Source: Scheffersomyces stipitis CBS 6054 (lineage: Eukaryota; Ascomycota; Pichiomycetes; Serinales; Debaryomycetaceae). Taken from it: a DNA stretch of 64,000 nt. The position numbers and the translations under genes are program-made. Numbering within the stretch: the first letter of the stretch is position 1; every line of letters begins with the position of its first letter. The notes below the pieces were generated by a model. The model was not told where the DNA came from. It was given only the letters and a program-made list of their open reading frames with translations, and searched no databases. The stretch spans positions 1,984,001 through 2,048,000 of the forward strand of contig NC_009068.1 in NCBI RefSeq assembly GCF_000209165.1. Reading direction: 5' to 3'. This document shows positions 9,076 to 35,526 of this stretch, piece after piece.

Positions 9076-9089
9076 GTCATATGCAGGAG

Positions 9090-9186
9090 TCTCCCGGGGG
9101 TGAGTCGAACACCCGATCTCAAGATTTCAGTAGTACTGAAGAGTAACTTTACAGTCTCGCGCCTTAGCCAGCTTGGCCACCGAGAG
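9090..9186 (-). tRNA. tRNA-Tyr (anticodon GTA) with a 23-base intron
   Basis: The acceptor CTCTCGG pairs with CCGGGAG, with discriminator A. The anticodon arm CGAGA-CTGTAAA-TCTTG is interrupted one base after the anticodon by a 23-base intron at 9126-9148, the canonical position and as in all yeast tRNA-Tyr. Exon 1 is 9149-9186 and exon 2 is 9090-9125, giving a 74-base mature tRNA before CCA. The T-arm GGTGTTCGACTCACC is intact. The next tRNA starts 14 bases downstream with no T run between. Confidence 0.96.
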
Positions 9187-20937: not shown

Positions 20938-22764
20938 TTAAGAAAGATGATACGCTTCCGACAAATTCTTTAACCTATCAAGTCGTCCTCTCATTTCTTT
21001 GGTGGTTGTTTCGTCTGTGATATTCAACCAGCCAATTTGCTCAATCATAACTAACAAATCCTCTCTTTGTTGAGTACCGAGATTATCTTGTCTTTTTGCT
21101 GTTCTTCGGAGGCTTACAGCAAACCTCTCTAGGTTGTCTCTGGCTTCAAGACGTTCTCTTGTAAGCAAATCTGCTTCCCGATATACCTCCGCTTCACTGA
21201 TAAGCTTCTGTATCTCAGCTTCTGGCAATCTGCTCTGATTGTTTCTAATCGTAATCTGATGTGAGATTCCAGACCGTACTTCAACAGCAGAAACTTCTAG
21301 AATACCATTATCATTTACAGTAAAGGTTACTTCAATTCGTGGTACTGCCTGTGGAGCAGGGGGTATATTAGTTAATGAAAACAGTCCTAACAAATTGTTA
21401 TGTTTCGTAAGTGATCTTTCTCCTTCAAACACCTGGATTTGAACAGCGGATTGATTATCGGTGCTTGTAGTAAAAAGCCTGGTAACAGAGTTAGGAATGG
21501 CTGTGTTTCTTGAAATAAGATTGGTCATTAACCCTCCTCTTGTTTCTACTCCTAGGGATAGAGGCGCCACTTCTAGTAAGACTATAGCACCATTATCTGA
21601 TTTTGACTTGAGAGTTTCCTCTGGAGTAAACGTGGCAGCTGCAATGGATGCACCAATGGCTACAGCCTCGTCGGGGTTGACTCTCCTAGTCAATTCGGCT
21701 CCGTCAAAGTACTCCGAAACCAATTCCTGAATTCGAGGTATTCTTGTAGATCCTCCAACCATCAAAATTTCGTCTACTTGATTCTTTGTCATTCCCGCCT
21801 CTTCAATTACTTCGTCTAGATAGACCAACGTTGATTGAAAAAGATCCTCACAAAGATCCTCAAACCTTGCTCTGGTGAGGGACAATGTGAAATCAATTCC
21901 ATTATAAAGAGATTCGATTTCAATTGAACTTCTAAGAATTCCAGTGGATAGTGTCCTTTTTAGTTGTTCACAGTTGTCTTTCAATTTCTGCATAGATTTA
22001 ACATTAGTGCTAATGTCCAACTTATGCTGTTCATAAAATTTACCTTTGAAATACTCAACTAGCCTGATATCCAAATCTTCACCTCCCAAATGGGTATTTC
22101 CACCAGTAGCTTTCACTTCAAACATATTTTTATAAATTTGCAATAAGGAAGCATCAAAGGTACCCCCTCCAAAATCGTAAACCAATACAGATTTGGTTTC
22201 TTTCAAATTCTGGTGATAGCCATAGGCAATAGCTGCTGCTGTAGGTTCATTTATTACTTTCAAAACGTTCAATCCAGCTATCCTTCCTGCATCAATAGTT
22301 GAATTTCTCTGAGAATCATTGAAAAAGGCTGGTACTGTGATGACAGCATCTTGAATTTCTACCCCAAGGAATGTCTCTGCTGTTTCTTTCATTTTTGACA
22401 ATACCATGGAGGATATGTTCTCTGGTGAAAATATTTTAGCCTCATTTCTGTACTCTGCTCTAACAAAAGGCTTACCATCTCTATCTACTACCTCGAATGG
22501 AAAGTTTTTAATATCCAGTTGAAGTTCATCATCATTAAATTCTCTACCAATCATTCTTTTAACACCGTAAATAGTATTAGTAGGATTCCTTCCAATTTGA
22601 AATCTTGCAGCTTCTCCAATCAATCTTTCAGATTCGTTGAAAGCTACACAAGATGGAGTTGTTCTATTACCTTGATCGTTAGCTATTACTTCTTCTCGGC
22701 CATTTTGAAAGATAGATACACATGAATAAGTTGTACCCAAATCGATTCCAATTGTTAGAGACAT
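20938..22764 (-). CDS. diverged cytosolic-type Hsp70 without EEVD tail (cluster gene 1)
   Basis: From the ATG at 22762-22764 the protein has 608 residues; the longer frame begins at a TTG and is not used. The ATPase domain is intact: [19 protein letters not shown] with the catalytic Lys, [22 protein letters not shown], and [10 protein letters not shown]. The interdomain linker and SBD start read [17 protein letters not shown]. The SBD beta part and the helical lid (to about residue 600) are present. It ends in SEAYHLS, lacking the Gly-rich segment and EEVD of SSA proteins, so docking to TPR co-chaperones such as Sti1 is not expected. It resembles SSA more than BiP or mitochondrial Hsp70 and has no targeting or HDEL signal. 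It shares a 660-base divergent region with gene 2. Likely an active ATPase with altered clients; function unknown. Confidence 0.92.
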
Positions 22765-23424
22765 TAGTAATTGTTTTGATACGCGAGCAAAGGATCTAAT
22801 ACGATTCAAACACTTGTATTTATACTCTCGAGAAGAAGAGCCGGTTTATGAGTTCGTAATGTATACCATTCAAACGATTGGAACAATTCTGACACAAAAG
22901 TCAAGAGTCATGAAAACATGATCGGATGGCTATGTCTACAGGTTTCGCCAATTGTGGAACACCACTTGGGAGATAAGCTTCTCCAAAATCGATATGCTGG
23001 AACTAATATTTTCTCATATGCACCCCTCTAAAATGGATTTTGCATCTATATGATCCATGCAGGAATTCAGCGGAGAAAGGTAAGCTAAATATAGAGTATG
23101 GATAATATTCGTACAGGTTGAACTTACAACAAGTCAGACAAACACCAAAAAAAAGGGATTGCCATGTGCCACCAACAGGCAGAGAAAATACTAATTTAAT
23201 TACTGAATGAAATGGTATTTGTCCACAAACACACAATATTAATAAAGTCACAAGTGGGTTGAAGCTCCTGAAAGGCTGTGAGACAACAAAAAGAAAAGAA
23301 AATACGAGCTTAGTGGTTGGATGTTTAACCTTACAAATAATAGAGAAAGCTGCCCCTACTTAAATCTTCAAAACAAATATGAGCCTGAAATCAGAGGCAA
23401 TTCTGCTCCATCCATTTCAATATA
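22765..23424. promoter_or_regulatory. divergent promoter region of Hsp70 genes 1 and 2
   Basis: This 660-base region serves two chaperone-like genes. Two stress-response-type CCCCT motifs are present at 23023-23027 and 23353-23357. I find only an imperfect heat-shock element (GAAGCTCCTGAAA near 23261), unlike the strong elements before gene 7. Next to the gene 1 start is TTCTCGAG beside a TATAAATA-like box; a similar TTCTCGAGTATAC occurs in front of gene 3. Confidence 0.5.
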
Positions 23425-25473
23425 ATGATTATTGGAGTTGATATAGGAAACTACAAGTCTGTAGTTGCAATCAACCAAGGTGGCATGATAAATATCCTAG
23501 CGAATGATTATGGTGAAAATTTCACTCCTTCTCTTGTCGGGCTAGGACAGAGAAACAGATTGTTCGGAGAAATAGCAAGGCACCAGCAGCATTCTTATCT
23601 AACATCAACAATTGGCAATCTCAAAAGATTACTTGGAGTGAGACCACGCGAGGAAAATTTCGCAACAGAATTGGAATTTGTAAAAGATTTAGAATTACAG
23701 ACTGCTGATGAACTAATGGTAAGAATTGACAAGAAAGGATCATACACAGCAACTCAACTAATGGCCATGATACTAAATAAACTAAAAACTTATAGTAAAT
23801 GCGAAGTGGATAAGATCTGTTTTTCGGTTCCTCAGTGGTATGATTCTTATGGGCGACGAGCGGCATTGGAAGCTTGCCAGATTGCAAATTTCAAAGAAAT
23901 AAAGATAGTCAATGAATTAACATCGGCAGCCACATGGTACGCTCATTCCAGACCAGTAGTATGCCCTACCATTGTATGCTTTATAGACATTGGATACACT
24001 TCCTTCCAGGTAGCGATCGCTGAAGTCAAACCCAGAAGTATTAGCATTCTAGGGTCAGCCAGCAACAGAAACTTTGGCGGTAGGAATATCGATTATGCAA
24101 TTGCTGAAATATTCAGAGAAAAATTTAGAAAAGAAAAAACAGATATAGCAAAAGCAGGCAAAGACTATTTCAAACTCGTCAAAGCAGTTGAAAAATTGAA
24201 AGAAATATTGTCAGTCAACAACGAAGCATCAGTTACCATAGAAGTGAATTTAGGAGGTTCCAATATCGAAGAAAAAGAACTTCACTTAACTAGAAAAGAC
24301 TTAGAAGATATCGTTGAGCAACAATGCAGAGTTTCTCAATTAATCACGGGCACTATAGAGGAAGTCATCAAGATTGCCCAAAAGACTATTTCATTCTCAA
24401 AATCGAAAGTTGAATCCATTGTGCTCATTGGAGGTAGTTCCAGAGTTCCTTGTATAAAGAAGGGTATAGAAGATTATTTTGGTAAACATCTTTCATTTAC
24501 ATTGAATCAAGATGAAGCCATAGCAAAGGGAAATGCATTGACAATGTCGGGCAAAGATGAAATCTTAGTGGAAGAATATAGAAACAGCTTCATTGAAGGT
24601 TCTTACAGACCTGACGATGCTCCAACGAGACTGTTTAGATTCCCTGATAGTTATCATCCAAGACTGGAAACCAAGTCGTTCTTGGGTAAAAGGAATTGTA
24701 AAATAAGTGTAAGGAGAGATGGTGAACAGCCAATCGAATGGTCAATTTCGAATGTGAAACAAATTTCAGATTGGGAAACTGTTATAAGGATAGAATTTGC
24801 CTTTGACCAGTTTAATATCCAACTCAAGAAGGCATACACTTGCCAGGGAACAGTGGTGAAACTGTCCAATGAGAAAATGGAAGTTAATGAAGAGAAAGCA
24901 GATATAAATGAGCAACAAATTCAAGATAGAAAACAATTGGCTGAAATATCCGACAGAGTGAGTAGATTTAAAAACATAGAGGACAAACTACTATTACAGG
25001 ATAAGGCTATAGAAGATAAAGAGAAAATGAGGAATATGTGTGAAGAAACTCTTTTAGGTTTGATTAGAAAATATGAAAAGCTGCAAGTTATAAAGGTTGC
25101 CCAAATGTTTATTGAGCAAGACGATCACAAAATAGAGGAATATGAAAAGGTGGTAAACAAAGCAGTGGTAGAGACGAGAGCTGCAGTGCAAGCAAGAAGA
25201 GCCTTCGAACAAGAGAAAAGAGTTATGGAAGACCAGAGGAAGAAGAAGCAAAGAGAAGAGCAAAGAGAAGAGCAAAGAGAAGAGCAAAGAGAAGAGCAAA
25301 GAGAGGAGCAAACAGAGGAGCAAAGAGAGGAGCAAAAGAAAGTAATAAAGACAGAAAAGAAAACGACAGAAGCCGAGGAGGAAATAAAGAGAGTGAACGA
25401 TGATAAGAAAGGTGAGGAAATATATTTTTACCTGAATGATGAATTGTCCAATGTGCCAATAATATATGAATGA
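23425..25473 (+). CDS. Sse1/Hsp110-like protein with coiled-coil and QREE-repeat tail (cluster gene 2)
   Basis: The 682-residue protein follows Sse1/Hsp110 rather than Hsp70: GVDIGNYKSVVAI, NLKRLLG, FSVPQWYDSYGR, IVNELTSAATWY, CFIDIGYTSFQVAI, NFGGRNIDYAIAE, LIGGSSRVPCI, LNQDEAIAKGNAL. Hsp110 proteins are nucleotide-exchange factors for Hsp70. After a shortened beta domain (to about residue 480) the expected Hsp110 lid is replaced by a long charged helix (residues ~490-600) and a run of seven QREE-type units encoded by a 12-base minisatellite (25249-25332). There is no EEVD. It is divergent from gene 1 and meets gene 3 tail to tail. Whether it still binds Hsp70 is unknown; the tail suggests self-association or a new partner. 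Confidence 0.9.
   Translation: MIIGVDIGNYKSVVAINQGGMINILANDYGENFTPSLVGLGQRNRLFGEIARHQQHSYLTSTIGNLKRLLGVRPREENFATELEFVKDLELQTADELMVRIDKKGSYTATQLMAMILNKLKTYSKCEVDKICFSVPQWYDSYGRRAALEACQIANFKEIKIVNELTSAATWYAHSRPVVCPTIVCFIDIGYTSFQVAIAEVKPRSISILGSASNRNFGGRNIDYAIAEIFREKFRKEKTDIAKAGKDYFKLVKAVEKLKEILSVNNEASVTIEVNLGGSNIEEKELHLTRKDLEDIVEQQCRVSQLITGTIEEVIKIAQKTISFSKSKVESIVLIGGSSRVPCIKKGIEDYFGKHLSFTLNQDEAIAKGNALTMSGKDEILVEEYRNSFIEGSYRPDDAPTRLFRFPDSYHPRLETKSFLGKRNCKISVRRDGEQPIEWSISNVKQISDWETVIRIEFAFDQFNIQLKKAYTCQGTVVKLSNEKMEVNEEKADINEQQIQDRKQLAEISDRVSRFKNIEDKLLLQDKAIEDKEKMRNMCEETLLGLIRKYEKLQVIKVAQMFIEQDDHKIEEYEKVVNKAVVETRAAVQARRAFEQEKRVMEDQRKKKQREEQREEQREEQREEQREEQTEEQREEQKKVIKTEKKTTEAEEEIKRVNDDKKGEEIYFYLNDELSNVPIIYE
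25249..25332 (+). repeat. seven-unit 12-base minisatellite in cluster gene 2
   Basis: Units of CAAAGAGAAGAG, later CAAAGAGAGGAG, with one CAAACAGAGGAG, seven in a row. Each encodes QREE or QTEE. Such repeats change copy number easily, so length may vary between strains. Confidence 0.92.
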
Positions 25474-25507
25474 GTTCCAAGTTATATATATATAGTTACG
25501 CAAATAA

Positions 25508-27388
25508 TTAGTTCTTTTTAAGTTCTGTCATTCCTCCTGTAAAGTATGGAGGTGGAGGCGGAAATAGTAATGATGATGCAATTTGTTCTAAATTTGCTTT
25601 CATCTCTTTAAAGTCATTAACAGTAGCAGTAGATGAACCCGAACTTTCGAGCCAAGTTTTGTTCCTATTTATATGTAAACGCATCTGCTGTTTATCTTCT
25701 TCAGATATTTCTGCTAAATCTGTCTTTCGTATTAGCGATAAGTTATAACTTTCAAATTCAAACTTGGCTCTATCTCTATCAGTGAGGGCTTCTTCTTCTC
25801 GTCTATAGGTATCAGAATCTGCAATCATTCTATCCATTACTGAAGCCGACAATCTTCCTCTTTCGTTTCTCACAAGTACTCTCTGCATCCTACCAGTTGT
25901 CCTCTCTACCGCTGAAACATGTAAAATACTGTTAGGGTCAATTTCGAAAGTTACTTCAATTTGAGGTATTCCAGCCTTCGTTCTCGGATAGTCCTTGAAA
26001 TCAAAAACTTCAAGCAAATTATTATTGATAACCTGTTTACTTTCACCTTCGAAGACCTCGACAGACACTTTTTCTTGAAAGTCTGTAATAGTAGTGTAAC
26101 ATCGTTTTCTTGATGTTGGAATTCTTGAATTTCTAGGAATCAAAACTGACATTTTACCATCATCAATTGCAACTCCAAGCGACAACGGGGCCACATCGTT
26201 GAGAATGACATTAGGTACAGATTCTCCCGATAAGATAGATGCTTGAATGGCTGCACCATAGGCTACTGCTTCATCTGGATTTATCGATTGACATGGTCTT
26301 TTCCCACCGAAAAAACCTGACACTTTCTTCCTAACAATAGGAATTCTGGTTGAACCTCCTACTAAAACCACTTCATCAACTTGCGACCTATCTATACCAG
26401 AATCCGCGAGAACTTGTTTCACTGGTCTCAAGATAGAATTAAGGAGGTCTTGACAGAGATATTCAAACTCTTGCCTTGTGATTGTTGTAGTAAAATCTGA
26501 GCCGGGAAGTAACGCTTCAAGTTCAATATTAACTTTTTCGCTAACACCCAACCGTTTCTTTGTAGACTCACACGCTCTTCTTAGTCTACCAAGTGCCTTG
26601 GGTTCGGAAGAAACATCTCTTCCCGTTTTCTGCTTTACTTGATGAACTAAGTGCCCGAGAAGCCTATTATTAAAATCTTCCCCTCCCAAGTGAGTATTAC
26701 CAGAAGTTGCTTTCACATCAAAGACCCCATCCTTATTATTAGTTGTTACCAAAGAGACGTCTAAAGTTCCACCTCCCAAGTCAAAGATGAGAACATTGCG
26801 AGACGGGATATTATCATTACGAGTGTTCAATCCATATGCAAATGCAGCTGCAGTAGGCTCATTTATGATCCTTAGGACGTTGAGTCCGGCTATTCTACCA
26901 GCGTCCTTTGTAGCTCGTCTTTGAGAATCGTTGAAATAGGCAGGCACCGTAATCACTGCGTCTGTTATTACTTCCTTAAGACGCCTCTCAGCTAGTGTTT
27001 TCATTTCCACTAGAACCATCGCTGAAATTTCTTCGGGAAAAAATAGCTTCATTTCTCCCTTATATTCCAACCTGAATACTGGTTTTCCATTCTGATTTAC
27101 AACATCAAATGGCATATGTCTGATGTCATTCTGAACCGAAATATCATTGAAATTTCTACCTATGAATCTTTTGGCTGAGAACACGGTGCTCCTCAAGTTT
27201 TTAGAAGCATTATTCTTAGCAGACTGTCCAAGTAACCTACCTTCTTTACTGAAGGAAACATATGATGGTGTAGTTCTATTCCCAGCGTCATCACTGATTA
27301 TCTCAACCTTGTCGTTTGAATAATAAGCCACACAACAATAGGTAGTCCCAAGATCAATACCAATTGCCTTTGATTTTCTTGACGACAT
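25508..27388 (-). CDS. diverged cytosolic-type Hsp70 without EEVD tail (cluster gene 3)
   Basis: A 626-residue Hsp70 with all ATPase motifs: [46 protein letters not shown] (Leu for the usual Phe), GGSTRIPIVR. The linker region is [18 protein letters not shown]. The substrate-binding beta domain contains DPNSILHVSA in place of the usual D(A/N)NGILNVSA. The lid is present, and the protein ends in a short FPPPPPYFTGGMTELKKN tail without EEVD. The start ATG is at 27386-27388, with a basic SSRKSKA N-terminus. It converges with gene 2 (34 bases between stops) and shares a 548-base divergent region with gene 4. Codon use is less biased than in gene 7, suggesting lower expression. Specific role unknown. 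Confidence 0.92.
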   Translation of the reverse strand: MSSRKSKAIGIDLGTTYCCVAYYSNDKVEIISDDAGNRTTPSYVSFSKEGRLLGQSAKNNASKNLRSTVFSAKRFIGRNFNDISVQNDIRHMPFDVVNQNGKPVFRLEYKGEMKLFFPEEISAMVLVEMKTLAERRLKEVITDAVITVPAYFNDSQRRATKDAGRIAGLNVLRIINEPTAAAFAYGLNTRNDNIPSRNVLIFDLGGGTLDVSLVTTNNKDGVFDVKATSGNTHLGGEDFNNRLLGHLVHQVKQKTGRDVSSEPKALGRLRRACESTKKRLGVSEKVNIELEALLPGSDFTTTITRQEFEYLCQDLLNSILRPVKQVLADSGIDRSQVDEVVLVGGSTRIPIVRKKVSGFFGGKRPCQSINPDEAVAYGAAIQASILSGESVPNVILNDVAPLSLGVAIDDGKMSVLIPRNSRIPTSRKRCYTTITDFQEKVSVEVFEGESKQVINNNLLEVFDFKDYPRTKAGIPQIEVTFEIDPNSILHVSAVERTTGRMQRVLVRNERGRLSASVMDRMIADSDTYRREEEALTDRDRAKFEFESYNLSLIRKTDLAEISEEDKQQMRLHINRNKTWLESSGSSTATVNDFKEMKANLEQIASSLLFPPPPPYFTGGMTELKKN

Positions 27389-27936
27389 GCTGTATACTCG
27401 AGAAATGGTCCTATCTTTATTCTACTGTGAGTTCTGGCCGTAAATTCACTAGCTTGCTTGAAAAGATTAAAAGTCTTTATTGAATGTGGGAATTGTTCTA
27501 ATCCTACTGGAGACCACCGAAAAATTACATCCTGGTGGGGATACTTAGAAAGCAGCAAAATTTAGATCCCTCTCACCTTACATCTGAAAAAGATGATATA
27601 GATTAGCATGCTTAAAAAATAAATAAAAATATACTTCGTAATTTTCATAACTGCATAAAAGTATAGACATTGGGACCTTTTATATCAGGAGAAATCAGAT
27701 GTCATCAATACTCAAAGCATCTGTCAACAGGGCAGTGTTCTATTCTATCATCTTGCGCGAGAAAGTCCAAAGGAAATTTGGATAGCCTTCTTTATGCTTC
27801 ATGTATCAAAGAAGATTTCTTTTCTGAATCGCTAGTAAATTCACTCAGAAAAGGTGTTCAGTTTTGGATCTTCCTCTTAGAGCTACAATAAAGCAAATTC
27901 AATTTATAGTTTCTTTGCGTCTCAACACAATTAATA
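27389..27936. promoter_or_regulatory. divergent promoter region of Hsp70 genes 3 and 4
   Basis: 548 AT-rich bases. I found no perfect heat-shock element by eye; GAAGATTTCTTTTCTGAA near 27810 is a weak candidate. TTCTCGAGTATAC near the gene 3 start matches the corresponding site by gene 1. The plus-strand frame at 27670-27891 has no recognisable features. Confidence 0.45.
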
Positions 27937-29799
27937 ATGAATAAACCAGTAATAGGAATTGATCTCGGGACAACCAACTCGTGCGTCGCAGTCTTTAATA
28001 ACAAAGTGGAAGTCATTGCCAACGTATTAGGTAGCAGAATAACACCTTCCTGTGTTTCTTTTGATGATAATGAAACTATTATTGGAGAGGGGGCAAAAAA
28101 TCAATTAGGAAAGAATCCTGAGAATACTGTCTATGGAACAAAGAGGTTAATTGGAAGAGACTTTGATGATCCCGAAGTTCAACATGATATAACTCATTTC
28201 CTATTCAAGGTTGTGAATAGAAATGGAAAGCCATTCATTCAAGTACAATACAAGAAAGAGATCAGAACTCTTCCCCCTGAAGAAATTTCTGCAATGGTAT
28301 TAGAAAGTGTGAAGTGCACAGCAGAAGAATATCTAGGTGTAAAAGTCGAGGATGTGGTTATTACAGTTCCAGCATACTTCAACGATTCCCAAAGAAAAGC
28401 AACCAAAGCAGCTGGTGAAATTGCTGGTCTCAATGTCCTAGGGATCATCAATGAACCAACTGCTGCAGCACTTGCCTATGGGCAGTCCAACAACAAAGAT
28501 TGCAAAGAAAGAAACTTATTGGTATATGACCTTGGAGGTGGAACCTTTGATGTTTCTTTGGTCACCCATTGCAAAGACGTCTACGAAGTGAGAGCAAGTG
28601 ATGGCGATAGCCATCTAGGTGGAGAAGATTTCGACAACATTCTTGTTGACTATTTTGCTAGTGAATTCATAGAAAGTTACCCTTGTAACCTCAAATCCGA
28701 CAAAACGTCAATGGCTAAACTCAGAAAAGAATGCGAGTCTGCGAAGAGAAGATTATGTGCTTCTCCTTCAACTGACATAGAAATTTCGTCCCTCTATGAT
28801 GGAAAGGCATTTAAAAGCAAACTCAGCAGGGCAAAATTTGATGAATTGTGTGGAGATCTCATAATGAAAACAATGAATACTGTTAAAGCAGTTATCGAGG
28901 CAGGTGGAATTATTAAAAGTGATGTGGACGAGGTTCTTCTTGTGGGAGGGTCTACAAGAATTCCAATGGTTCAGAAAGAGGTTGCAAAGTTTTTTGAAGG
29001 CACTAAGATTAGCAAAAAAGCGAATGCGGACGAAGTTATAGCAGAAGGAGCTGCAATTCAGGCTCATATACTATCGACAGAGCCTAGAGTAGTGCTTCTA
29101 GATGTTGCTCCTAAATCCTTAGGATTAAAGGCAATTGGTGATCGAATGGTGAAAATGATTCCTAAGAACCTGGCTATACCTTCTACTAATTCCAAAGATT
29201 TCACAACAGTTTCAGATTATCAAACTAATTTGGTAGTCAAAGTATTTGAAGGAGAGAATGAAGTATGTTCAAAAAACCGTCTACTTGGGGAGTTTGAACT
29301 AAGTGGAATCCAAAGGGCCACAAAGGGAGAAGCTAGAATAATCGTGGTGTTCAATGTCGACGACAATGGTATATTGAAAGTATCTGCTACAGAATCAAAA
29401 ACCAACAAGACAAAGTCTCTCACTATTACCAAATTAAAGGAGAGTTGGACAGAAAAGGAAAAACAACGAGTTTCAACTGAAATTGAAGAGTTTAAAAGAG
29501 ATCGAGAGCTTCACTCAGCAATGAGTAAAGAAATAGAACAAGAAATCTATAAAATTGAACACCTTCTCAGTGCAATGAACAATGTTCTCACAGATCCTAG
29601 AATTAAAAGCAAGATACCTGCTAAGATTAAAAGAGATATCATCATACAAATCATTGATGCCAACAAGTGGTTACTGAATGCAGATAAGGAGTCTTTACAA
29701 ACTTGTAAAGATAAATTTTCTACTCTTAAATTCTTTTCACAGGCGTGTATTCCAAATGGGTATGTTAACTATTTTGAGACAAGAAAATCAAATCTTTAG
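27937..29799 (+). CDS. strongly diverged Hsp70 with altered linker, no EEVD (cluster gene 4)
   Basis: A 620-residue Hsp70: [53 protein letters not shown] and GGSTRIPMVQ are all conserved, so ATP binding is likely. Two usually fixed places have changed. [11 protein letters not shown] is NADEVIAEGAA, and the linker/SBD entry DVAPLSLG is DVAPKSLGL, putting a lysine at a hydrophobic position. The lid is Lys/Glu-rich and ends in ETRKSNL with no Gly-rich tail or EEVD. The CTG codon at 29170-29172 falls in PKN-CTG-AIP, where relatives have Thr, Ser or Ala, which supports CTG meaning Ser here. It is divergent from gene 3 and upstream of gene 5. Interdomain signalling may be altered; this is inference. 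Confidence 0.91.
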   Translation: MNKPVIGIDLGTTNSCVAVFNNKVEVIANVLGSRITPSCVSFDDNETIIGEGAKNQLGKNPENTVYGTKRLIGRDFDDPEVQHDITHFLFKVVNRNGKPFIQVQYKKEIRTLPPEEISAMVLESVKCTAEEYLGVKVEDVVITVPAYFNDSQRKATKAAGEIAGLNVLGIINEPTAAALAYGQSNNKDCKERNLLVYDLGGGTFDVSLVTHCKDVYEVRASDGDSHLGGEDFDNILVDYFASEFIESYPCNLKSDKTSMAKLRKECESAKRRLCASPSTDIEISSLYDGKAFKSKLSRAKFDELCGDLIMKTMNTVKAVIEAGGIIKSDVDEVLLVGGSTRIPMVQKEVAKFFEGTKISKKANADEVIAEGAAIQAHILSTEPRVVLLDVAPKSLGLKAIGDRMVKMIPKNLAIPSTNSKDFTTVSDYQTNLVVKVFEGENEVCSKNRLLGEFELSGIQRATKGEARIIVVFNVDDNGILKVSATESKTNKTKSLTITKLKESWTEKEKQRVSTEIEEFKRDRELHSAMSKEIEQEIYKIEHLLSAMNNVLTDPRIKSKIPAKIKRDIIIQIIDANKWLLNADKESLQTCKDKFSTLKFFSQACIPNGYVNYFETRKSNL

Positions 29800-30050
29800 A
29801 ATGAAGTCACGAAAGATGAACAATCTGTCTGTCATTAATTGTCGATTAATAATATGTAATGTGTTTGTAATTACTTTAGTTTGCAAAAAAAATCTTTACC
29901 CTAATCCCGGTAGGGAAGGTAGGCTGTACCAATGTAAAATTAGACACCACACAAAAGCAACTTGAAGACAAGAAGGTTCTCTTGGTTAAAACAAATGAAA
30001 TTTCCCGACTTTGAAAGTTAACACAACTTGTGGTGAGTATACCATTTTCC

Positions 30051-31079
30051 ATGAAACTCTTCGTAGGAATTGATATTGGATCTACACAAAGTCGGCTCTT
30101 TGCCATCAATGACGATAAGGAATTCGCCAGTCCGTCCAAACCAGAAGCCGAAGTCCAACAAAATGAACTTGAACTATGCGTGCTAACTGTACCCAGTATT
30201 TTAAGTTCGAAACTATTAGCGAACCCTGATATAAGTGGGAGAAACCAAATGGTTATCCAAAGGGTAATAGATGATATTAAGAAAAAGACAAAGCTGAAAT
30301 ATGATATTGAATTCCAACAGTGCTACATTTCACTTCCCAGGTGGTATATCGAGAAAAATAAGTTACCGAGTGAGTTCAAGATACAAGACAGATGTAAATG
30401 TTTAAGAAATTCTTATATATCCAAAGTTCCCAATGGAAAAGTTCTATTCATTGATGTTGGAAGTCAACTTGAAATTTCTTGCTTCGCAGGAAATAAGATT
30501 ATTTTTAGTCATTATTTCTCCAAATTGGGTGGTAACAAGTTCGATAAGGACCTAGTAGCATCATGCGTTGAATCATTTGAGCCAAGACATATATCTCTCT
30601 ACAGAAAAGATCCAGTAGCACAAAAAAGACTTGAGTTTGCCTGTAGACTAGTGAAGGAGAGCTTTGGAGATAAAGACGAAGTGACGGCCAATATTTACGA
30701 CTTTTTGGATAGCACTGATTTTGTAAGGCTGATCTCCAAAGATAAGTTGATTGCAATATTAAAGAACAGCTTCAATGAATTAAGAAGAGCAATTTCAGAG
30801 AAACTTAAAATCGAGAGAGTGGACGAAATAGATGAAATTGTGTTAGCTGGAAGAGCTGCAAATGTTCCAGGTCTCCAAAATTTTATAACAAGAGCATTCA
30901 AGGGTGCTAGCATTGACACCTTAGATAATTTTTCCATTGCTAAAGGTGCTGCTCTTGAGATGAAGAAGAAGGAAAGACTGGAGAAGATTGACAAGTCCTA
31001 TTTCACTACACCGAAGAAGTTCTTCAATGTAATCTCCAAACATGCGGCTACTACTCTTCACCAAGGGGATGGAAATTGA
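30051..31079 (+). CDS. Hsp110-like protein reduced to the nucleotide-binding domain (cluster gene 5)
   Basis: From the ATG at 30051 the protein has 342 residues; seven codons of upstream open frame begin at a GTG. It keeps the actin-like fold markers in weakened form: FVGIDIGSTQSRLFAI (phosphate 1), ISLPRWYIEKN (Hsp110-type PxWY), LFIDVGSQLEIS (phosphate 2, where Hsp70 has DLGGGTFD), LGGNKFDKDLVAS, IVLAGRAANVPGL (adenosine motif) and FSIAKGAALEM. The protein stops about 40 residues later, so there is no substrate-binding domain. Several loops are shortened relative to the ~385-residue domain. The frame is intact, so it is probably a real gene. An Hsp110-like domain alone could act as an exchange factor or decoy for the neighbouring Hsp70s; untested. 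Confidence 0.85.
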   Translation: MKLFVGIDIGSTQSRLFAINDDKEFASPSKPEAEVQQNELELCVLTVPSILSSKLLANPDISGRNQMVIQRVIDDIKKKTKLKYDIEFQQCYISLPRWYIEKNKLPSEFKIQDRCKCLRNSYISKVPNGKVLFIDVGSQLEISCFAGNKIIFSHYFSKLGGNKFDKDLVASCVESFEPRHISLYRKDPVAQKRLEFACRLVKESFGDKDEVTANIYDFLDSTDFVRLISKDKLIAILKNSFNELRRAISEKLKIERVDEIDEIVLAGRAANVPGLQNFITRAFKGASIDTLDNFSIAKGAALEMKKKERLEKIDKSYFTTPKKFFNVISKHAATTLHQGDGN

Positions 31080-31876
31080 GAGAATACTAGTACTGGCTAA
31101 GAAGGCATCATCATTTTCTTACGACTTACAAAAAAAATGAATATCTTCCGCATAGCGTAATTTGTATCTTCAATACAATCTGATTATCATGATATTTATG
31201 ACCTCGTAATACCTAGAGGCTCTTTCATAACTTTTAGAGATCTATCTAATTCGGGACAGAATCAGAAGATCAGAAGATCTCTTTGAAATCACTATAAAAG
31301 TGAAGATTAGCCAAGAGCTACTTGAAAAATAAAGCAAATATAATTCTGCTTTGGTGTCCATGAAGAATAAAACCTTGTATTGGCCACGGGTCACCAAGAT
31401 AAGTAAGTGACTTCCGTACATGATTCGATTGCAAGATGCTCTCACATATTTCTAATTTCCAAATATGAAGTTCACTCGTGGGAAGAGCATTTCTATTATT
31501 TTTCTTAACTGCATGGTATTTGTTAGAGTAGCCATGGATTACTAGGAGCAGATGTCTTATTTTTTTAGGAGTTGATTGCAAAAATATTCATTCAAGTCTA
31601 CCTTTCTTACCAGGACAGACTATGAAGATTACGAGGCTGAGGGGATGTATGTAGAGAAGATAATACCCACTGAGATAATTATTTATGTACTAAATGCAAG
31701 TACTTGGCCCACAGATCATCTCAATTCTTAACTTTACCGTTCACAGCATATACCTACTTTTATCCTTTGTAAAATTCCTCGATTATATAAGATTCCCTAT
31801 AAAAAGACTTCGTGTGGAGTTTGCTTGCTCACTCTCTATTACATACCTTCTTGCTGAAATAATTGCTTGAGAGACT
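31080..31876. other. intergenic region between cluster genes 5 and 6
   Basis: 797 AT-rich bases with no supportable gene; frames at 31242-31445 and 31318-31581 (minus) lack protein features. A TATAAAAAG box lies about 80 bases before gene 6. I looked for leftover ATPase-domain sequence upstream of gene 6 and recognised none in the frames available. Confidence 0.5.
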
Positions 31877-32977
31877 ATGGGTGTGCTCAACCACATATTT
31901 CAAAAGAAGTCGAAGTCGAAAGAAAAAGGATCACAGAAGAAGTTGTCAAAGGAAACCCGCAAAGTTCAAAATTATGCGTCGATGACAATTGGCATTAGGG
32001 TGAAAGATGATGTAATTGTCGACGTGATCTACATTGGCACTGCAATTCCAATAGTCAAGTCCATTATGTACTACCCTAAACCGTCAAATTTCTCTGAAGA
32101 GCCAACAGTATTCGAAGTTGTTGGTGGATATGACTATAAAATTCTAGGACAGTTTCAATTATATGGAAAAGCTTTGAACAATCCACAATTTCAAATAGAT
32201 TTCTTGATGAACGAAAACAAAGTATTGAATATTACCGTCGTTGACTTGGATTCCGGAAGGTACGGCAACATAGAGATTTCAAACTACAGCGGAATAGAGC
32301 AGCAAATGGAAGGGGCAAAGCTTCCATCAAAGGAAACCAGGCGACCACAATCCTATACACCAATGTCAATTGGTATTAGGGTGAAAGATGATGTAACTGT
32401 CGACCTAATCTACGCTGGCACTGCAATTCCAATAGCGAAATCCATTATGTACTACCCTAAACCTTCAGATTTCTTTGAAGAGCCAACAATATTCGAAGTT
32501 ATTGGTGGATATGACTACAAAATTATAGAGCAGTTTAAGCTATATGGAAAAGCTTTCAGCAATCCTCGATTTCGAATTGATTTTTCAATGAACGAAAACA
32601 AAGTATTGAATATTACCGTCGTTGACTTGGATTCGGGAAGATGCAGCAAAATAGAGATTTCAAAGTACACAGCCATGGAGCAACATGCCGACTACAAGTA
32701 TGATAATAGCAGCCGAGATAGCAGATCGTCTGAAATCGATCAAATCAAACAATTAATATCCATAGTTAAATATGCTGTAAGGGATGGAAATCTCAGAGCA
32801 AAGATATCTGTTATTAGTAAACAAGAGATGAACTCCATGGCCTACGAGATAGAAGACTGGATGAAGCTTTCGCAAGATGCATCGCTTGGTGAACTTCAGC
32901 TCAAACACGCTAAGTTGCAGGCAGTTATCAGGGAGCAAATTCCCCCTGGATACAAGCCATGGAGGGTGGAGGGATGA
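31877..32977 (+). CDS. tandem Hsp70 substrate-binding-domain protein with no ATPase domain (cluster gene 6)
   Basis: This 366-residue protein has no nucleotide-binding domain. A basic N-terminus (residues 1-33) leads into two copies of a ~127-residue unit (about 23-142 and 149-268). Each unit matches the Hsp70 SBD beta sandwich: (M)SIGIRVKDDV, AGTAIPIAKS (compare NATIPTKKS of SSA), YGKAFSNPRFRIDFSMN and ENKVLNITVVDLDSG (compare [15 protein letters not shown]). The C-terminal ~80 residues resemble the Hsp70 lid: VRDGNLRAKI (compare NDGELKEKI of SSA) and EIEDWMKLSQDAS (compare [13 protein letters not shown]). The two units share a 47-base identical stretch, so the duplication is recent or kept alike by conversion. 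It sits just upstream of SSA. A nucleotide-independent holdase or a partner for gene 5 is conceivable. Confidence 0.85.
   Translation: MGVLNHIFQKKSKSKEKGSQKKLSKETRKVQNYASMTIGIRVKDDVIVDVIYIGTAIPIVKSIMYYPKPSNFSEEPTVFEVVGGYDYKILGQFQLYGKALNNPQFQIDFLMNENKVLNITVVDLDSGRYGNIEISNYSGIEQQMEGAKLPSKETRRPQSYTPMSIGIRVKDDVTVDLIYAGTAIPIAKSIMYYPKPSDFFEEPTIFEVIGGYDYKIIEQFKLYGKAFSNPRFRIDFSMNENKVLNITVVDLDSGRCSKIEISKYTAMEQHADYKYDNSSRDSRSSEIDQIKQLISIVKYAVRDGNLRAKISVISKQEMNSMAYEIEDWMKLSQDASLGELQLKHAKLQAVIREQIPPGYKPWRVEG
31940..32305 (+). repeat. SBD-beta unit, copy 1, in cluster gene 6
   Basis: First copy of the duplicated unit; period is 381 bases (127 codons) to the second. Bases 32207-32253 are identical to 32588-32634. 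Boundaries are approximate and were judged from the protein alignment. Confidence 0.85.
32321..32686 (+). repeat. SBD-beta unit, copy 2, in cluster gene 6
   Basis: Second copy, separated from the first by a short linker. Differences from copy 1 are spread out and mostly conservative, as expected for a functional repeat. Confidence 0.85.
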
Positions 32978-33307
32978 AATGGGGCAAGTGGATAATGCAT
33001 TTCCCTTACCCCAGATATTGGTATCCACACGTGCATTTCACATGTACTATTTCCTGCACGCGTGCATAATTTGCAACCCTGAATGCATCAAATATGCAGG
33101 GATAATTAATCAGGAGACTTGAGATCTTGAGGTCAAATGGATCCCTTGTTGCACCGCTGAACTGCTGGATGAATTCAAGAAGTAAAACGAATAAGCCGAC
33201 TTAATACCAGGGCATGGAATGAAATCACTGACATACTATTGATGCCCGTCGCCACCAAAACTTGCCACTGGAACCAGATTTTCTCTTAGCCGCTGCGTCC
33301 CAATTAG

Positions 33308-33345
33308 GAAGGTTCCAGACTCAGCGCGAAAATTCTGGCACTTTC
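33308..33345. promoter_or_regulatory. heat-shock element cluster upstream of SSA
   Basis: GAAGGTTCCAGAC (33308-33320) gives two perfect and one near-perfect alternating HSE units. GAAAATTCTGGCACTTTC (33328-33345) gives four units, with GCA as the only weak one. The pattern nGAAnnTTCn is the binding site of Hsf1 trimers, and the position about 220-260 bases before the SSA start is typical. Confidence 0.8.
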
Positions 33346-33392
33346 TAGTCAATCAGATCAGTTTTTTTTTTTGCATCTGCACTCCCCTCATA

Positions 33393-33405
33393 GAACTTTC
33401 TAGCA
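33393..33405. promoter_or_regulatory. additional heat-shock element upstream of SSA
   Basis: GAACTTTCTAGCA has two perfect units and one partial unit in correct phase, about 165 bases before the start codon. It adds to the cluster at 33308-33345. Confidence 0.65.
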
Positions 33406-33567
33406 AACTCCTTATACCCCTTAGTGGATGGGGTTAGAATAGTATTTAAGTGGAGGTTGAGACGGCGTTAGAATCAACCTCCTGTTTTCAGTTCCAATTG
33501 AAAACTCTATTGTTTTTACTTTTTCAAGTAGTTTTGAACATACAGATTAAGTATTGTCATCACCAAA

Positions 33568-35526
33568 ATGTCTAAGGCTATAGGAATTGATTTAGGAACC
33601 ACATACTCGTGTGTGGCTCATTTCGCCAACGACCGTGTGGAGATTATTGCCAATGACCAAGGTAACAGAACAACTCCCTCATACGTTGCCTTCACCGATA
33701 CCGAGAGATTGATCGGTGATGCTGCCAAGAACCAGGCTGCAATGAACCCTTCTAATACTGTATTTGATGCTAAGAGATTGATCGGTAGAAAGTTCAATGA
33801 GGACGAAGTTCAGTCAGATATCAAGCATTGGCCGTTCAAAGTCATCGACAAGGGTGGAAAGCCCAATATTCAGGTTGAGTTCAAGGGTGAAACCAAGGTA
33901 TTCACCCCAGAAGAAGTGTCATCTATGGTTTTGACTAAGATGAGAGAAACCGCCGAAAACTTCTTGGGAACAACTGTCACTGATGCTGTTGTCACTGTAC
34001 CTGCCTATTTTAACGATTCGCAGAGACAGGCCACCAAGGATGCTGGTTTGATTGCCGGATTGAATGTTTTGAGAATCATTAATGAACCAACGGCAGCCGC
34101 AATTGCCTACGGATTGGATAAGAAGGGTCAAAGCGCCCACGAGCAGAATATTTTGATTTTTGACTTGGGAGGTGGAACTTTTGATGTGTCCTTGTTGGCT
34201 ATAGATGAAGGTATTTTCGAAGTTAAGGCCACAGCAGGTGATACTCACTTGGGTGGAGAAGATTTCGACAACAGATTGGTCGCCCACTTCATTAACGAGT
34301 TCAAGAGAAAACACAAGAAGGACTTGTCCTCCAACCAAAGGGCTTTGAGAAGATTGAGAACTGCCTGTGAAAGAGCCAAGAGATCGTTATCTTCTTCAGC
34401 TCAGACATCCATTGAAATAGACTCTCTTTTCGAGGGTATCGATTTCTACACTTCCATCACTAGAGCCAGGTTCGAAGAATTATGTGCTGATTTATTCAGA
34501 ACGACCTTGGATCCAGTTGAAAAGGTGCTTAAGGATTCCAAGATCGACAAGTCCCAAGTTCATGAGATTGTCTTGGTTGGTGGATCCACTAGAATTCCAA
34601 AGATCCAGAAGTTGGTTTCTGATTTCTTTAATGGAAAGGAGCCAAACAAGTCCATCAACCCAGATGAGGCCGTTGCCTACGGTGCTGCAGTTCAAGCTGC
34701 CATCTTGACTGGTGATACTTCTTCCAAGACGCAGGACTTGTTGTTGTTGGATGTAGCCCCATTGTCCTTGGGTATCGAAACTGCCGGAGGTGTTATGACC
34801 AAGTTGATCCCAAGAAATGCCACAATTCCAACCAAGAAGTCGGAAATATTTTCGACCTATGCTGATAACCAGCCAGGTGTCTTGATCCAAGTTTTTGAAG
34901 GTGAAAGAGCCAGAACGAGAGACAACAATTTATTGGGTAAATTCGAATTGTCTGGTATCCCACCTGCTCCAAGAGGTGTACCTCAGATTGAAGTTACATT
35001 CGACATTGATGCAAATGGTATTTTGAATGTTTCGGCTTTGGAAAAGGGTACTGGTAAGACTCAAAAGATTACCATTACCAATGATAAGGGTAGGTTGTCT
35101 AAGGAAGATATTGAAAGAATGGTCAACGAGGCTGAAAAGTATAAGGAGGAAGATGAGAAGGAATCATCCAGAATTGGTGCTAAGAATACCCTTGAATCTT
35201 ATGCATATTCTTTGAAGACCACAATCAATGATGGCGAATTGAAGGAAAAGATTCCAGCTGACGACAAGGAGAAGTTGCAAAAGGCTATTGATGAAACGAT
35301 TTCCTGGTTGGACGAATCACAACAGGCTACAACTGAAGAGTACAATGACAGACATAAGGAATTGGAATCAGTTGCAAATCCAATAATCACAGCAGCCTAC
35401 TCCGCTGCTGGAGGTGCTCCAGGCGGTGTTCCAGGTGGTGCTCCAGGCGGAGGAGCTCCAGGCGGTTTCCCAGGAGCAGGTCCCTCGCAGGACTCATCTG
35501 GACCAACTGTGGAAGAAGTTGACTAA
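33568..35526 (+). CDS. SSA1: canonical cytosolic Hsp70, SSA subfamily (cluster gene 7)
   Basis: The 652-residue protein is a textbook Ssa Hsp70: [71 protein letters not shown], linker [19 protein letters not shown], full beta domain and lid, a Gly/Ala/Pro-rich tail and the terminal EEVD that binds TPR co-chaperones. Ssa proteins fold nascent and stress-denatured proteins, disaggregate with Hsp104, and deliver clients to Hsp90 and organelles. Codon use is strongly biased (nearly all Leu as TTG), a sign of high expression. Several heat-shock elements lie upstream. It is the last gene of the cluster and the probable parent type of genes 1, 3, 4 and 6. SSA1 is used as a subfamily label; orthology to SSA1 versus SSA2 is not resolvable. 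Confidence 0.96.

What the first reader, a model, noticed from the sequence alone, without database searches (positions are those of the whole stretch)
20938..35526. Cluster of seven Hsp70/Hsp110-related genes, six strongly diverged
Genes 1-6 have no unrelated gene among them and end at an ordinary SSA gene. Yeast cytosolic Hsp70 genes are normally dispersed and highly conserved. Here ATPase motifs are kept in genes 1, 3 and 4, while tails, linkers and substrate domains vary, and two genes hold only one half of the Hsp70 architecture. This looks like a local birth-and-diversification locus for chaperones, possibly a dedicated chaperone module.
Basis: partly seen in the sequence, partly recalled or inferred. 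Interest (0 to 1): 0.92.

Follow-up and report, generated by a model that had tools for sequence, protein, structure and literature searches.

The report
Fast-evolving yeast Hsp70 cluster, PPxY tails
A xylose-fermenting yeast carries nine extra, very fast-changing relatives of the normally highly conserved Hsp70 chaperones in two gene clusters, and several have a tail motif that usually attracts a ubiquitin-tagging enzyme in place of the usual chaperone tail.

Summary
In detail: window 20938-35526 holds seven adjacent Hsp70/Hsp110-related genes, six strongly diverged, the last an ordinary SSA. The genome (15.44 Mb, 8 contigs) is most likely Scheffersomyces stipitis. It has nine canonical Hsp70-family genes and nine diverged ones: six here, three in a second cluster on contig 4. 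The five full-length diverged Hsp70s keep all seven nucleotide-site residues checked and preferentially keep SSA-invariant NBD positions, yet have end branches 10-30 times the usual SSA length. Gene 2 derives from SSE/Hsp110, gene 5 is a partial ATPase domain, gene 6 has two SBD-beta copies and no ATPase domain (dN/dS between copies 0.36). New: four of nine diverged proteins carry PPxY within their last 15 residues and none of the nine ends in EEVD; a fifth has LPxY. None of nine canonical paralogues and none of 239 retrieved relatives has PPxY. PPxY binds WW domains of Rsp5/Nedd4 ligases; RSP5 is present. Best reading: a lineage-specific Hsp70 family rewired towards Rsp5-linked quality control. 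Family and selection are shown; Rsp5 binding is inferred. No orthologue of gene 3 was seen, but searches with genes 2 and 6 did not return even themselves, so lineage restriction is provisional.

The parts
20938..22764 (-). g1: full-length diverged SSA-type Hsp70, 608 aa; no EEVD, no PPxY
   Evidence: 53% to SSA; seven nucleotide-site residues kept; J-site R169 to Lys, Y147 to Phe, linker Asp to Glu
23425..25473 (+). g2: Hsp110/SSE-derived protein, 682 aa; SSE-type ATPase domain, poorly conserved SBD/lid part, REEQ repeat
   Evidence: 38% to own SSE1; best PDB match Sse1 (214.9 bits; best Hsp70 147.9); keeps 46 of 64 SSE-invariant NBD positions but 6 of 22 elsewhere
25241..25340 (+). 12-bp tandem repeat (8.3 copies) inside g2, coding REEQ repeats
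   Evidence: translation
25508..27388 (-). g3: full-length diverged SSA-type Hsp70, 626 aa, C-terminal PPPY
25544..25555 (-). PPxY motif (PPPY, residues 612-615 of 626) of g3
   Evidence: coordinates worked out from the ORF
27937..29799 (+). g4: full-length diverged SSA-type Hsp70, 620 aa; J-site arginine replaced by glycine; tail IPNGY (not PPxY)
30051..31079 (+). g5: partial ATPase-domain protein, 342 aa; catalytic Lys falls in a gap and catalytic Glu is not kept in the alignment; no SBD
31877..32977 (+). g6: SBD-only protein, 366 aa: SBD-beta copy 1, SBD-beta copy 2, lid, PPGY tail
31949..32296 (+). SBD-beta copy 1 of g6 (116 aligned codons)
32330..32677 (+). SBD-beta copy 2 of g6 (87 of 116 residues identical to copy 1; dN/dS 0.36, bootstrap 95% 0.22-0.62)
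32942..32953 (+). PPxY motif (PPGY, residues 356-359 of 366) of g6
   Evidence: coordinates worked out from the ORF
33568..35526 (+). g7: ordinary SSA Hsp70, 652 aa, ends in EEVD
33308..33405 (+). four HSE-like sites upstream of g7 (one mismatch each)

Best explanation
The locus is one of two clusters of a fast-evolving set of nine Hsp70-like genes born from SSA (and, for g2, SSE) duplicates in the lineage of this CUG-Ser1 yeast. Shown from sequence: the frames are intact; the five full-length Hsp70-type members keep the nucleotide-site residues and preferentially the SSA-invariant positions, while SBD, lid and tail have drifted most; none of the nine ends in EEVD; four of nine carry PPxY in the short tail (a fifth LPxY). 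Inferred: full-length members still run an ATP-driven client cycle with J-proteins; the PPxY tail docks on WW domains of Rsp5, so bound clients go to ubiquitination rather than to EEVD/TPR partners. Also inferred: g2 is an exchange-factor-like partner; g6 an ATP-independent holdase or adaptor with two client clefts and a PPxY; g5 a regulatory remnant. In effect these would be chaperone-type Rsp5 adaptors, doing in one polypeptide what S. cerevisiae splits between Ydj1 and Rsp5.
For: Nine canonical plus nine diverged Hsp70-like genes in the genome (17 PF00012 places, plus g6). PPxY in 4 of 9 diverged and LPxY in 1 more, against 0 of 9 canonical (LHS1 read only to 922 aa, where its locus ends) and PPxY in 0 of 239 retrieved Hsp70/Hsp110 proteins, some of them partial. 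Tail (last 20) PPxY or LPxY in 0 of 49 other ORFs from the window and fetched loci, canonical Hsp70s included; chance of 4 or more of 9 is 3e-10 with their tail composition and 1.3e-7 with the diverged tails' own; of 200,000 shuffles of the diverged tails 2 reached three and none four. The motif lies where the SSA tail was. Seven nucleotide-site residues kept in 5 of 5. SSA-invariant NBD positions kept more than variable ones (67-79% against 39-48%, p 1e-5 to 3e-12). g6 copies dN/dS 0.36, 0 of 5000 bootstraps at 1 or above. A frame with three WW domains and a HECT-like end (Rsp5) is present. Rsp5 works with the Hsp40 Ydj1, presumably a substrate adaptor, plus PY motifs on heat-misfolded clients (PMC5059457 and PMC7463752 passages); its WW domains bind PPXY of adaptors and some substrates (PMC3628405 passages).
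Against: No binding, expression or phenotype data. The motif was noticed first and tested after, and the three contig-4 proteins are related, so independent origins may be as few as two or three. g1, g2, g4 and g5 have no PPxY, so the reading covers only part of the family. One of 49 background ORFs has LPxY in its last 30 residues and 3 of 49 have PPxY somewhere. Codon adaptation is low (0.26-0.31), like many window genes, implying low basal expression; g1-g4 and g6 have no HSE-like site. Lid identity as low as this is also seen in SSB (0.30), so lid drift alone is not special. In the lid and, for g4, the SBD-beta, preferential retention of invariant positions is weak. PPxY could equally mark the proteins as Rsp5 substrates or bind Wwm1-type proteins. 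No orthologue shows the motif conserved between species. No structure model could be obtained.
Confidence: 0.42

Rival explanations
1. The PPxY tails make these proteins Rsp5 substrates or bind another WW protein (for example Wwm1-like), tuning their own turnover or location; the proteins act as ordinary weak chaperones or co-chaperones without delivering clients.
For: PY motifs on some substrates, not only adaptors, are bound by Nedd4-family WW domains (PMC3628405 passage); the reference list of PMC5059457 cites a PY-motif-insertion method for preparing ubiquitinated substrates. Two Wwm1-like WW frames are in the genome (name recalled).
Against: Does not explain why the motif recurs in the tail position of client-binding proteins, including g6, which has no ATPase domain.
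Confidence: 0.22
2. They are regulatory, atypical Hsp70s acting on the canonical SSA machine: g2 as exchange factor, g5 and g6 as half-proteins that compete for J-proteins, exchange factors or clients; the tails are secondary.
For: Atypical SSE, SSZ and LHS evolve fast and modulate canonical partners (PMC3879978 passages). g2 is nearest to SSE. g4 has lost the J-site arginine, g1 carries Lys there.
Against: The five full-length Hsp70-type members keep all seven nucleotide-site residues checked, more than a pure regulator needs; g2 keeps only 6 of 22 SSE-invariant positions outside the NBD.
Confidence: 0.18
3. Relaxed, decaying duplicates kept for a while after duplication; PPxY tails arose by chance from proline-rich SSA tails.
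For: Low codon adaptation; long branches; g5 and c4C have lost parts; PPP runs occur in some ordinary SSA tails (two of the fetched ones, P0159 and P0172).
Against: Nine open frames over deep divergence; SSA-invariant NBD positions preferentially kept; g6 copies dN/dS 0.36; 0 of 200,000 tail shuffles reach four PPxY.
Confidence: 0.13
4. Arms-race or incompatibility genes: rapid evolution, clustering and apparent lineage restriction reflect a genetic conflict (for example with a killer element or virus that uses Hsp70 or Rsp5).
For: End branches 1.57-2.98 against a median of 0.15; no orthologue of g3 among the listed relatives.
Against: No direct evidence; none of the neighbouring ORFs that I read looked like a mobile or toxin gene (by eye, with Pfam only for the two flanks here).
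Confidence: 0.05

Closest known systems
Canonical cytosolic Hsp70, SSA subfamily
   Same: g7 is one; g1, g3, g4, c4A and c4B share NBD, linker, SBD and lid and all seven nucleotide-site residues checked
   Different: 44-53% identity instead of 87% between the two own SSAs, no EEVD, lid 20-31% identical, end branches 10 to 30 times the usual SSA length of 0.10-0.15
SSE/Hsp110 exchange factors (Sse1, Msi3)
   Same: g2 is nearest to SSE1 in the genome, in the protein database and in the PDB
   Different: 29-41% identity in the listed hits, best over the NBD; SBD and lid poorly recognisable; REEQ repeat
Rsp5/Nedd4 adaptors with PPxY motifs (ARTs)
   Same: short PPxY in a protein that could select clients (PMC3628405 passages)
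   Different: Hsp70 fold rather than arrestin fold; Rsp5 binding untested
Ydj1-Rsp5 heat-stress quality control of S. cerevisiae
   Same: a chaperone is proposed as substrate adaptor for Rsp5 (PMC5059457 passages; PMC8698790 passages)
   Different: there the adaptor is an Hsp40 and the PY motif is on the client; here a PPxY is on the Hsp70-like protein itself
SSA birth-and-death in the Yarrowia clade (PMC3879978)
   Same: lineage-specific SSA copy gain, two to seven copies (section 15)
   Different: that paper has a section on low SSA sequence divergence and explains the SSA pair of CTG species by one ancestral duplication; the parts I saw describe no cluster of strongly diverged copies

Membership tests
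Canonical SSA Hsp70 (g1, g3, g4; contig-4 c4A, c4B) | Complete NBD with the nucleotide-site residues | tested here: met
   D8, T11, K69, E173, D199, T204, D206 (g7 numbering) kept in 5 of 5
Canonical SSA Hsp70 (g1, g3, g4; contig-4 c4A, c4B) | C-terminal EEVD | tested here: not met
   0 of 5 (0 of all nine diverged); g7 and the contig-6 SSA have it
Canonical SSA Hsp70 (g1, g3, g4; contig-4 c4A, c4B) | Low sequence divergence and placement in the SSA clade | tested here: not met
   End branches 1.57-2.98; g3 placed beside SSB with low support, the other four outside the SSA group; long-branch effects possible, so the placement part is unsure
Canonical SSA Hsp70 (g1, g3, g4; contig-4 c4A, c4B) | ATP-dependent client binding and release with J-proteins | not testable with these tools
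   needs biochemistry; J-site R169 kept in 3 of 5, linker Asp in 4 of 5
SSE/Hsp110 (g2) | Closest relationship to SSE rather than to Hsp70 | tested here: met
SSE/Hsp110 (g2) | SSE-type SBD, insertion and lid | tested here: not met
   6 of 22 SSE-invariant positions kept outside the NBD, against 45 of 289 variable ones (p 0.23); one genome match to SSE1 does run to residue 648 at 33% identity, so a remnant is likely
SSE/Hsp110 (g2) | Nucleotide-exchange activity on Hsp70 | not testable with these tools
   needs biochemistry
PPxY-bearing Rsp5 adaptor | PPxY motif in an accessible segment | tested here: met
   g3, g6, c4A, c4C within the last 15 residues (4 of 9), LPxY in c4B; accessibility is inferred from the position after the lid
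PPxY-bearing Rsp5 adaptor | Rsp5 present in the same organism | tested here: met
   802-codon frame with three WW domains on contig 4; HECT by reading the sequence, not by a family search
PPxY-bearing Rsp5 adaptor | Binding to Rsp5 and client ubiquitination | not testable with these tools
   needs biochemistry
Arrestin-related trafficking adaptor (ART) | Arrestin fold | tested here: not met
   Pfam lists only HSP70 and MreB_Mbl for g1-g6 at E 0.001; the contig-4 proteins were not scanned with Pfam singly, only found with the HSP70 model

The most novel reading that the evidence does not exclude
An Hsp70 family that has exchanged the EEVD/TPR output for a PPxY/WW output: client-binding Hsp70-like ATPases, and an ATPase-free tandem-SBD protein, that are themselves adaptors of the Nedd4-type ligase Rsp5, maintained by fast lineage-specific evolution in two gene clusters.
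Probability: 0.3. Interest if true: 0.86.

Novelty: new variant of a known kind. Interest (0 to 1): 0.7.

Why it matters
Hsp70s are among the most conserved proteins; a survey of 53 ascomycetes reports seven subfamilies (PMC3879978, abstract and section 14). A yeast with nine extra, selected, rapidly diverging members does not fit that picture. If the PPxY tails bind Rsp5, chaperone triage between refolding and degradation would be set by a swap of a few C-terminal residues, testable directly by tail exchange. The tandem-SBD protein without an ATPase domain is also an unusual natural test of what an Hsp70 clamp does alone.

Tried and rejected
Pseudogene cluster: rejected as the main reading, though g5 and c4C have lost parts. 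Head-to-tail tandem array: not so, g1 and g3 are on the minus strand. Heat-shock regulation of the whole cluster: not supported; three-unit HSE-like sites in 800 bases upstream: g7 four, SSE1 two, c4B two, g5, c4A, SSB and the contig-6 SSA one each, g1, g2, g3, g4, g6, c4C and KAR2 none, with 0.22-0.31 expected for each. Phylogenetic origin: the full tree and separate NBD and SBD trees leave the long branches unresolved; only c4A+c4B is firm. Orthologues: one search each with g2, the SBD-to-tail part of g3, and g6; g6 gave nothing. Further copies in the genome: searches with g6, g5, c4C and g2 showed no Hsp70-like place beyond those known; one weak match at E 0.46 on contig 5 was not followed. 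The first alignment of whole g6 with full-length Hsp70s (A1) put copy 1 on NBD columns and was dropped. Structure prediction never started. Literature: stipitis+Hsp70+tandem gave 3 papers, none on such a cluster by title; Scheffersomyces+HSP70+gene family none; Hsp70+EEVD+PPxY none; four of five terms on divergent yeast Hsp70 gave 3, none on it by title; five other searches listed nothing on it by title. The library lacks most subscription papers, so this does not show that nothing is in print. In the main text of the P. stipitis gene-cluster review PMC2784038 the terms heat shock, HSP70, SSA and chaperon occur 0 times.
Full report
What is there. The window is contig 1, bases 1984001-2048000, of a 15,441,179-base, 8-contig genome. 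The genome carries no name. Size and chromosome number fit Scheffersomyces stipitis (15.4 Mb, eight chromosomes; PMC8546629, passages), and the closest of three Scheffersomyces SSE1 proteins compared is that of S. xylosifermentans at 89% identity (S. amazonensis 81%, S. coipomensis 69%). I treat it as S. stipitis, a CUG-Ser1 yeast, read with table 12. Seven neighbouring genes between a MutL-type gene and a Na/Ca-exchanger-type gene all match Pfam HSP70 above its cut-off. The gaps between them are 34 to 797 bases, and no other ATG ORF of 100 aa or more is listed there.

Genome census. PF00012 finds 17 places; g6 is an eighteenth that this search did not list. I sort them by similarity, leaders and tails (gene names recalled) into nine canonical genes, SSC1, KAR2, two SSAs (g7 and one on contig 6), SSB, SSQ1, SSE1, SSZ1 and LHS1, and nine diverged ones: g1-g6 here and c4A, c4B, c4C at contig 4, 85-91 kb, between a PEX5-like and an ornithine-aminotransferase-like gene (names of these two recalled). 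c4A is in L011, c4B in L010, c4C in L016.

Divergence. The two SSAs are 87% identical. g1, g3 and g4 are 47-53% identical to them and score lower against each other; c4A and c4B are 49% identical to each other and 45-50% to the SSAs; g2 is 38% identical to SSE1. In a tree of 22 proteins under a site-mixture model the diverged end branches are 1.57-2.98 against a median of 0.15 for all rows and 0.06-0.22 for most SSAs (some near-identical Candida rows are shorter). Of the groupings that involve diverged genes only c4A+c4B is firm. One clade of the five full-length genes is not rejected for the whole protein, NBD alone or SBD plus lid (AU p 0.251, 0.305, 0.139). Long branches make the exact origin unknowable from these data. 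Identity to g7 falls from NBD (0.51-0.60) to SBD-beta (0.38-0.58) to lid (0.20-0.31). For comparison SSB has 0.72, 0.50 and 0.30, and the other SSA 0.89, 0.96 and 0.67.

Selection. Among positions invariant in 62 SSA proteins (60 of 79 EEVD-ending relatives, taken in order, plus the two own SSAs), the five diverged Hsp70s keep 107-125 of 159 in the NBD, against 89-112 of 231 variable positions (p 1e-5 to 3e-12). In SBD-beta they keep 33-54 of 67 (p below 0.01 for four of five; g4 p 0.09). In the lid the contrast is weak (p below 0.05 for three of five). All seven nucleotide-site residues checked are kept in 5 of 5. The J-protein-site arginine is kept in 3 of 5 (Lys in g1, Gly in g4) and the linker aspartate in 4 of 5 (Glu in g1). 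g2 keeps 46 of 64 SSE-invariant NBD positions (102 of 321 variable ones) but 6 of 22 outside the NBD (45 of 289 variable; p 0.23). g6 holds an in-frame 381-base tandem duplication of SBD-beta. Both copies match solved Hsp70 substrate domains separately (residues 35-146 and 161-352). Their dN is 0.137 and dS 0.379, ratio 0.36 (bootstrap 95% 0.22-0.62, 0 of 5000 at or above 1), so the copies have been under purifying selection since the duplication. g5 matches only about residues 157-303 to the later NBD; in the alignment the catalytic lysine falls in a gap and the catalytic glutamate is not kept, so it is not an ordinary ATPase.

Tails. None of the nine diverged proteins ends in EEVD. Four have PPxY within the last 15 residues: g3 PPPY 612-615 of 626, g6 PPGY 356-359 of 366, c4A PPPY 609-612 of 623 (with LPSY at 616), c4C PPPY 342-345 of 348. 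c4B has LPLY 614-617 of 625. g1, g2, g4 and g5 have neither; g4 has IPNGY. In g3 and g6 the motif follows the lid almost directly; in c4A, c4B and c4C a short linker lies between. None of the nine canonical proteins (LHS1 read to 922 aa, where its locus ends) has PPxY or LPxY, and none of the 239 other retrieved Hsp70/Hsp110 proteins contains PPxY; those 239 are the listed hits of two searches, not a random sample, and some are partial. Among 49 other ORFs of 150 aa or more from the window and fetched loci (canonical Hsp70s included, not checked to be genes one by one) none has PPxY or LPxY in the last 20 residues; one has LPxY in the last 30, and three have PPxY somewhere. Chance of four or more of nine is 3e-10 with their tail composition and 1.3e-7 with the diverged tails' own; three or more, 1.7e-7 and 1.5e-5. 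Of 200,000 shuffles of the diverged tails 2 reached three and none four. Caveats: the motif was noticed first and tested after; c4A, c4B and c4C are kin, so the proteins are not independent.

What it could mean. PPxY is the ligand of WW domains of Nedd4-type ligases; Rsp5 uses it on adaptors, and some substrates are bound the same way (PMC3628405, passages). After heat, Rsp5 is described as recognising misfolded cytosolic proteins through Ydj1, presumably a substrate adaptor, plus exposed PY motifs (PMC5059457 passages; PMC7463752 and PMC8698790 passages; the primary 2014 paper was not held). The genome encodes an 802-codon frame with three WW domains and, by reading, a HECT-type C-terminus (Rsp5), as well as PRP40-, SET2-, two ESS1- and two WWM1-like frames (gene names recalled). 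A client-binding Hsp70 that carries its own PPxY could hand clients directly to Rsp5. This is inference; binding, expression and phenotype are unknown. Codon adaptation of the diverged genes is low (0.26-0.31, against 0.57 for g7 and 0.87 for the other SSA, which is itself in the reference set; 14 other window ORFs span 0.26-0.57), which suggests low or conditional expression.

Elsewhere. The SBD-to-tail part of g3 found 7041 proteins at E 0.001 or better among 7999 scored. Of the 120 listed, one is g3 itself and the other 119 are at 34-41% identity. I fetched six of these 119 to read: SSA-type, BiP-type or plant Hsp70 by sequence, some with duplicated parts. S. amazonensis is in the list with an ordinary SSA, and S. 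xylosifermentans and S. coipomensis are in the database, yet no orthologue of g3 shows. The g3 entry stands for two sequences in two contigs, the longest of 250,997 bases, so g3 or a close variant is recorded outside the 3.51-Mb contig used here. For g2, 402 proteins matched and 120 were listed, at 29-41% identity; the named top ones are SSE1/Msi3/Hsp88. g6 had none at E 1. Since these two searches did not return g2 or g6 themselves, at least these proteins seem not to be held, and their absence elsewhere is weak evidence. g1, g4 and g5 were not searched there.

Known work. Kominek et al. 2013 (PMC3879978; abstract, sections 5, 14, 15 and passages) find seven Hsp70 subfamilies in 53 ascomycetes, low SSA sequence divergence, and an SSA pair in CTG species. 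The main text never names stipitis, Scheffersomyces or Pichia, and supplements and figures were not seen. In the review of P. stipitis gene clusters (PMC2784038, passages) the terms heat shock, HSP70, SSA and chaperon do not occur. So the members belong to a known superfamily; the clustered, rapidly evolving, EEVD-less and partly PPxY-tailed set looks like a new variant of it.

Limits. No structure model, no expression data, no synteny from other yeasts, one database search only for a full-length cluster Hsp70, and no strain comparison.

Noticed in passing
G000 contig 4, about 85-91 kb (L010, L011, L016, L018, L019): Second cluster of three diverged Hsp70-like genes, two full-length and one with most of the ATPase and substrate domains missing, all with PPxY or LPxY near the C-terminus.
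   Followed up: yes
G000 contig 6, about 564.9-565.8 kb (L046, L048): Two neighbouring ESS1-like frames (WW domain plus, by reading, a prolyl-isomerase-like part; name recalled) on the same strand, a possible tandem duplication.
   Followed up: no
G000 contig 7:137016 (L039) and contig 5:518621 (L045): Two WWM1-like single-WW frames (name recalled) with glycine- or proline/glutamine-rich tails; possible alternative partners for PPxY motifs.
   Followed up: partly
window 9089-9186: ARAGORN calls an odd tRNA-like element with a four-base anticodon (aaag), 13 bases from a tRNA-Thr; may be an intron-bearing tRNA or a false call.
   Followed up: no
P0122 (Sungouiella intermedia, 913 aa): An SSA whose annotated sequence repeats the substrate domain and tail almost exactly; could be an assembly or annotation artefact, or a recent duplication reminiscent of g6.
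   Followed up: no
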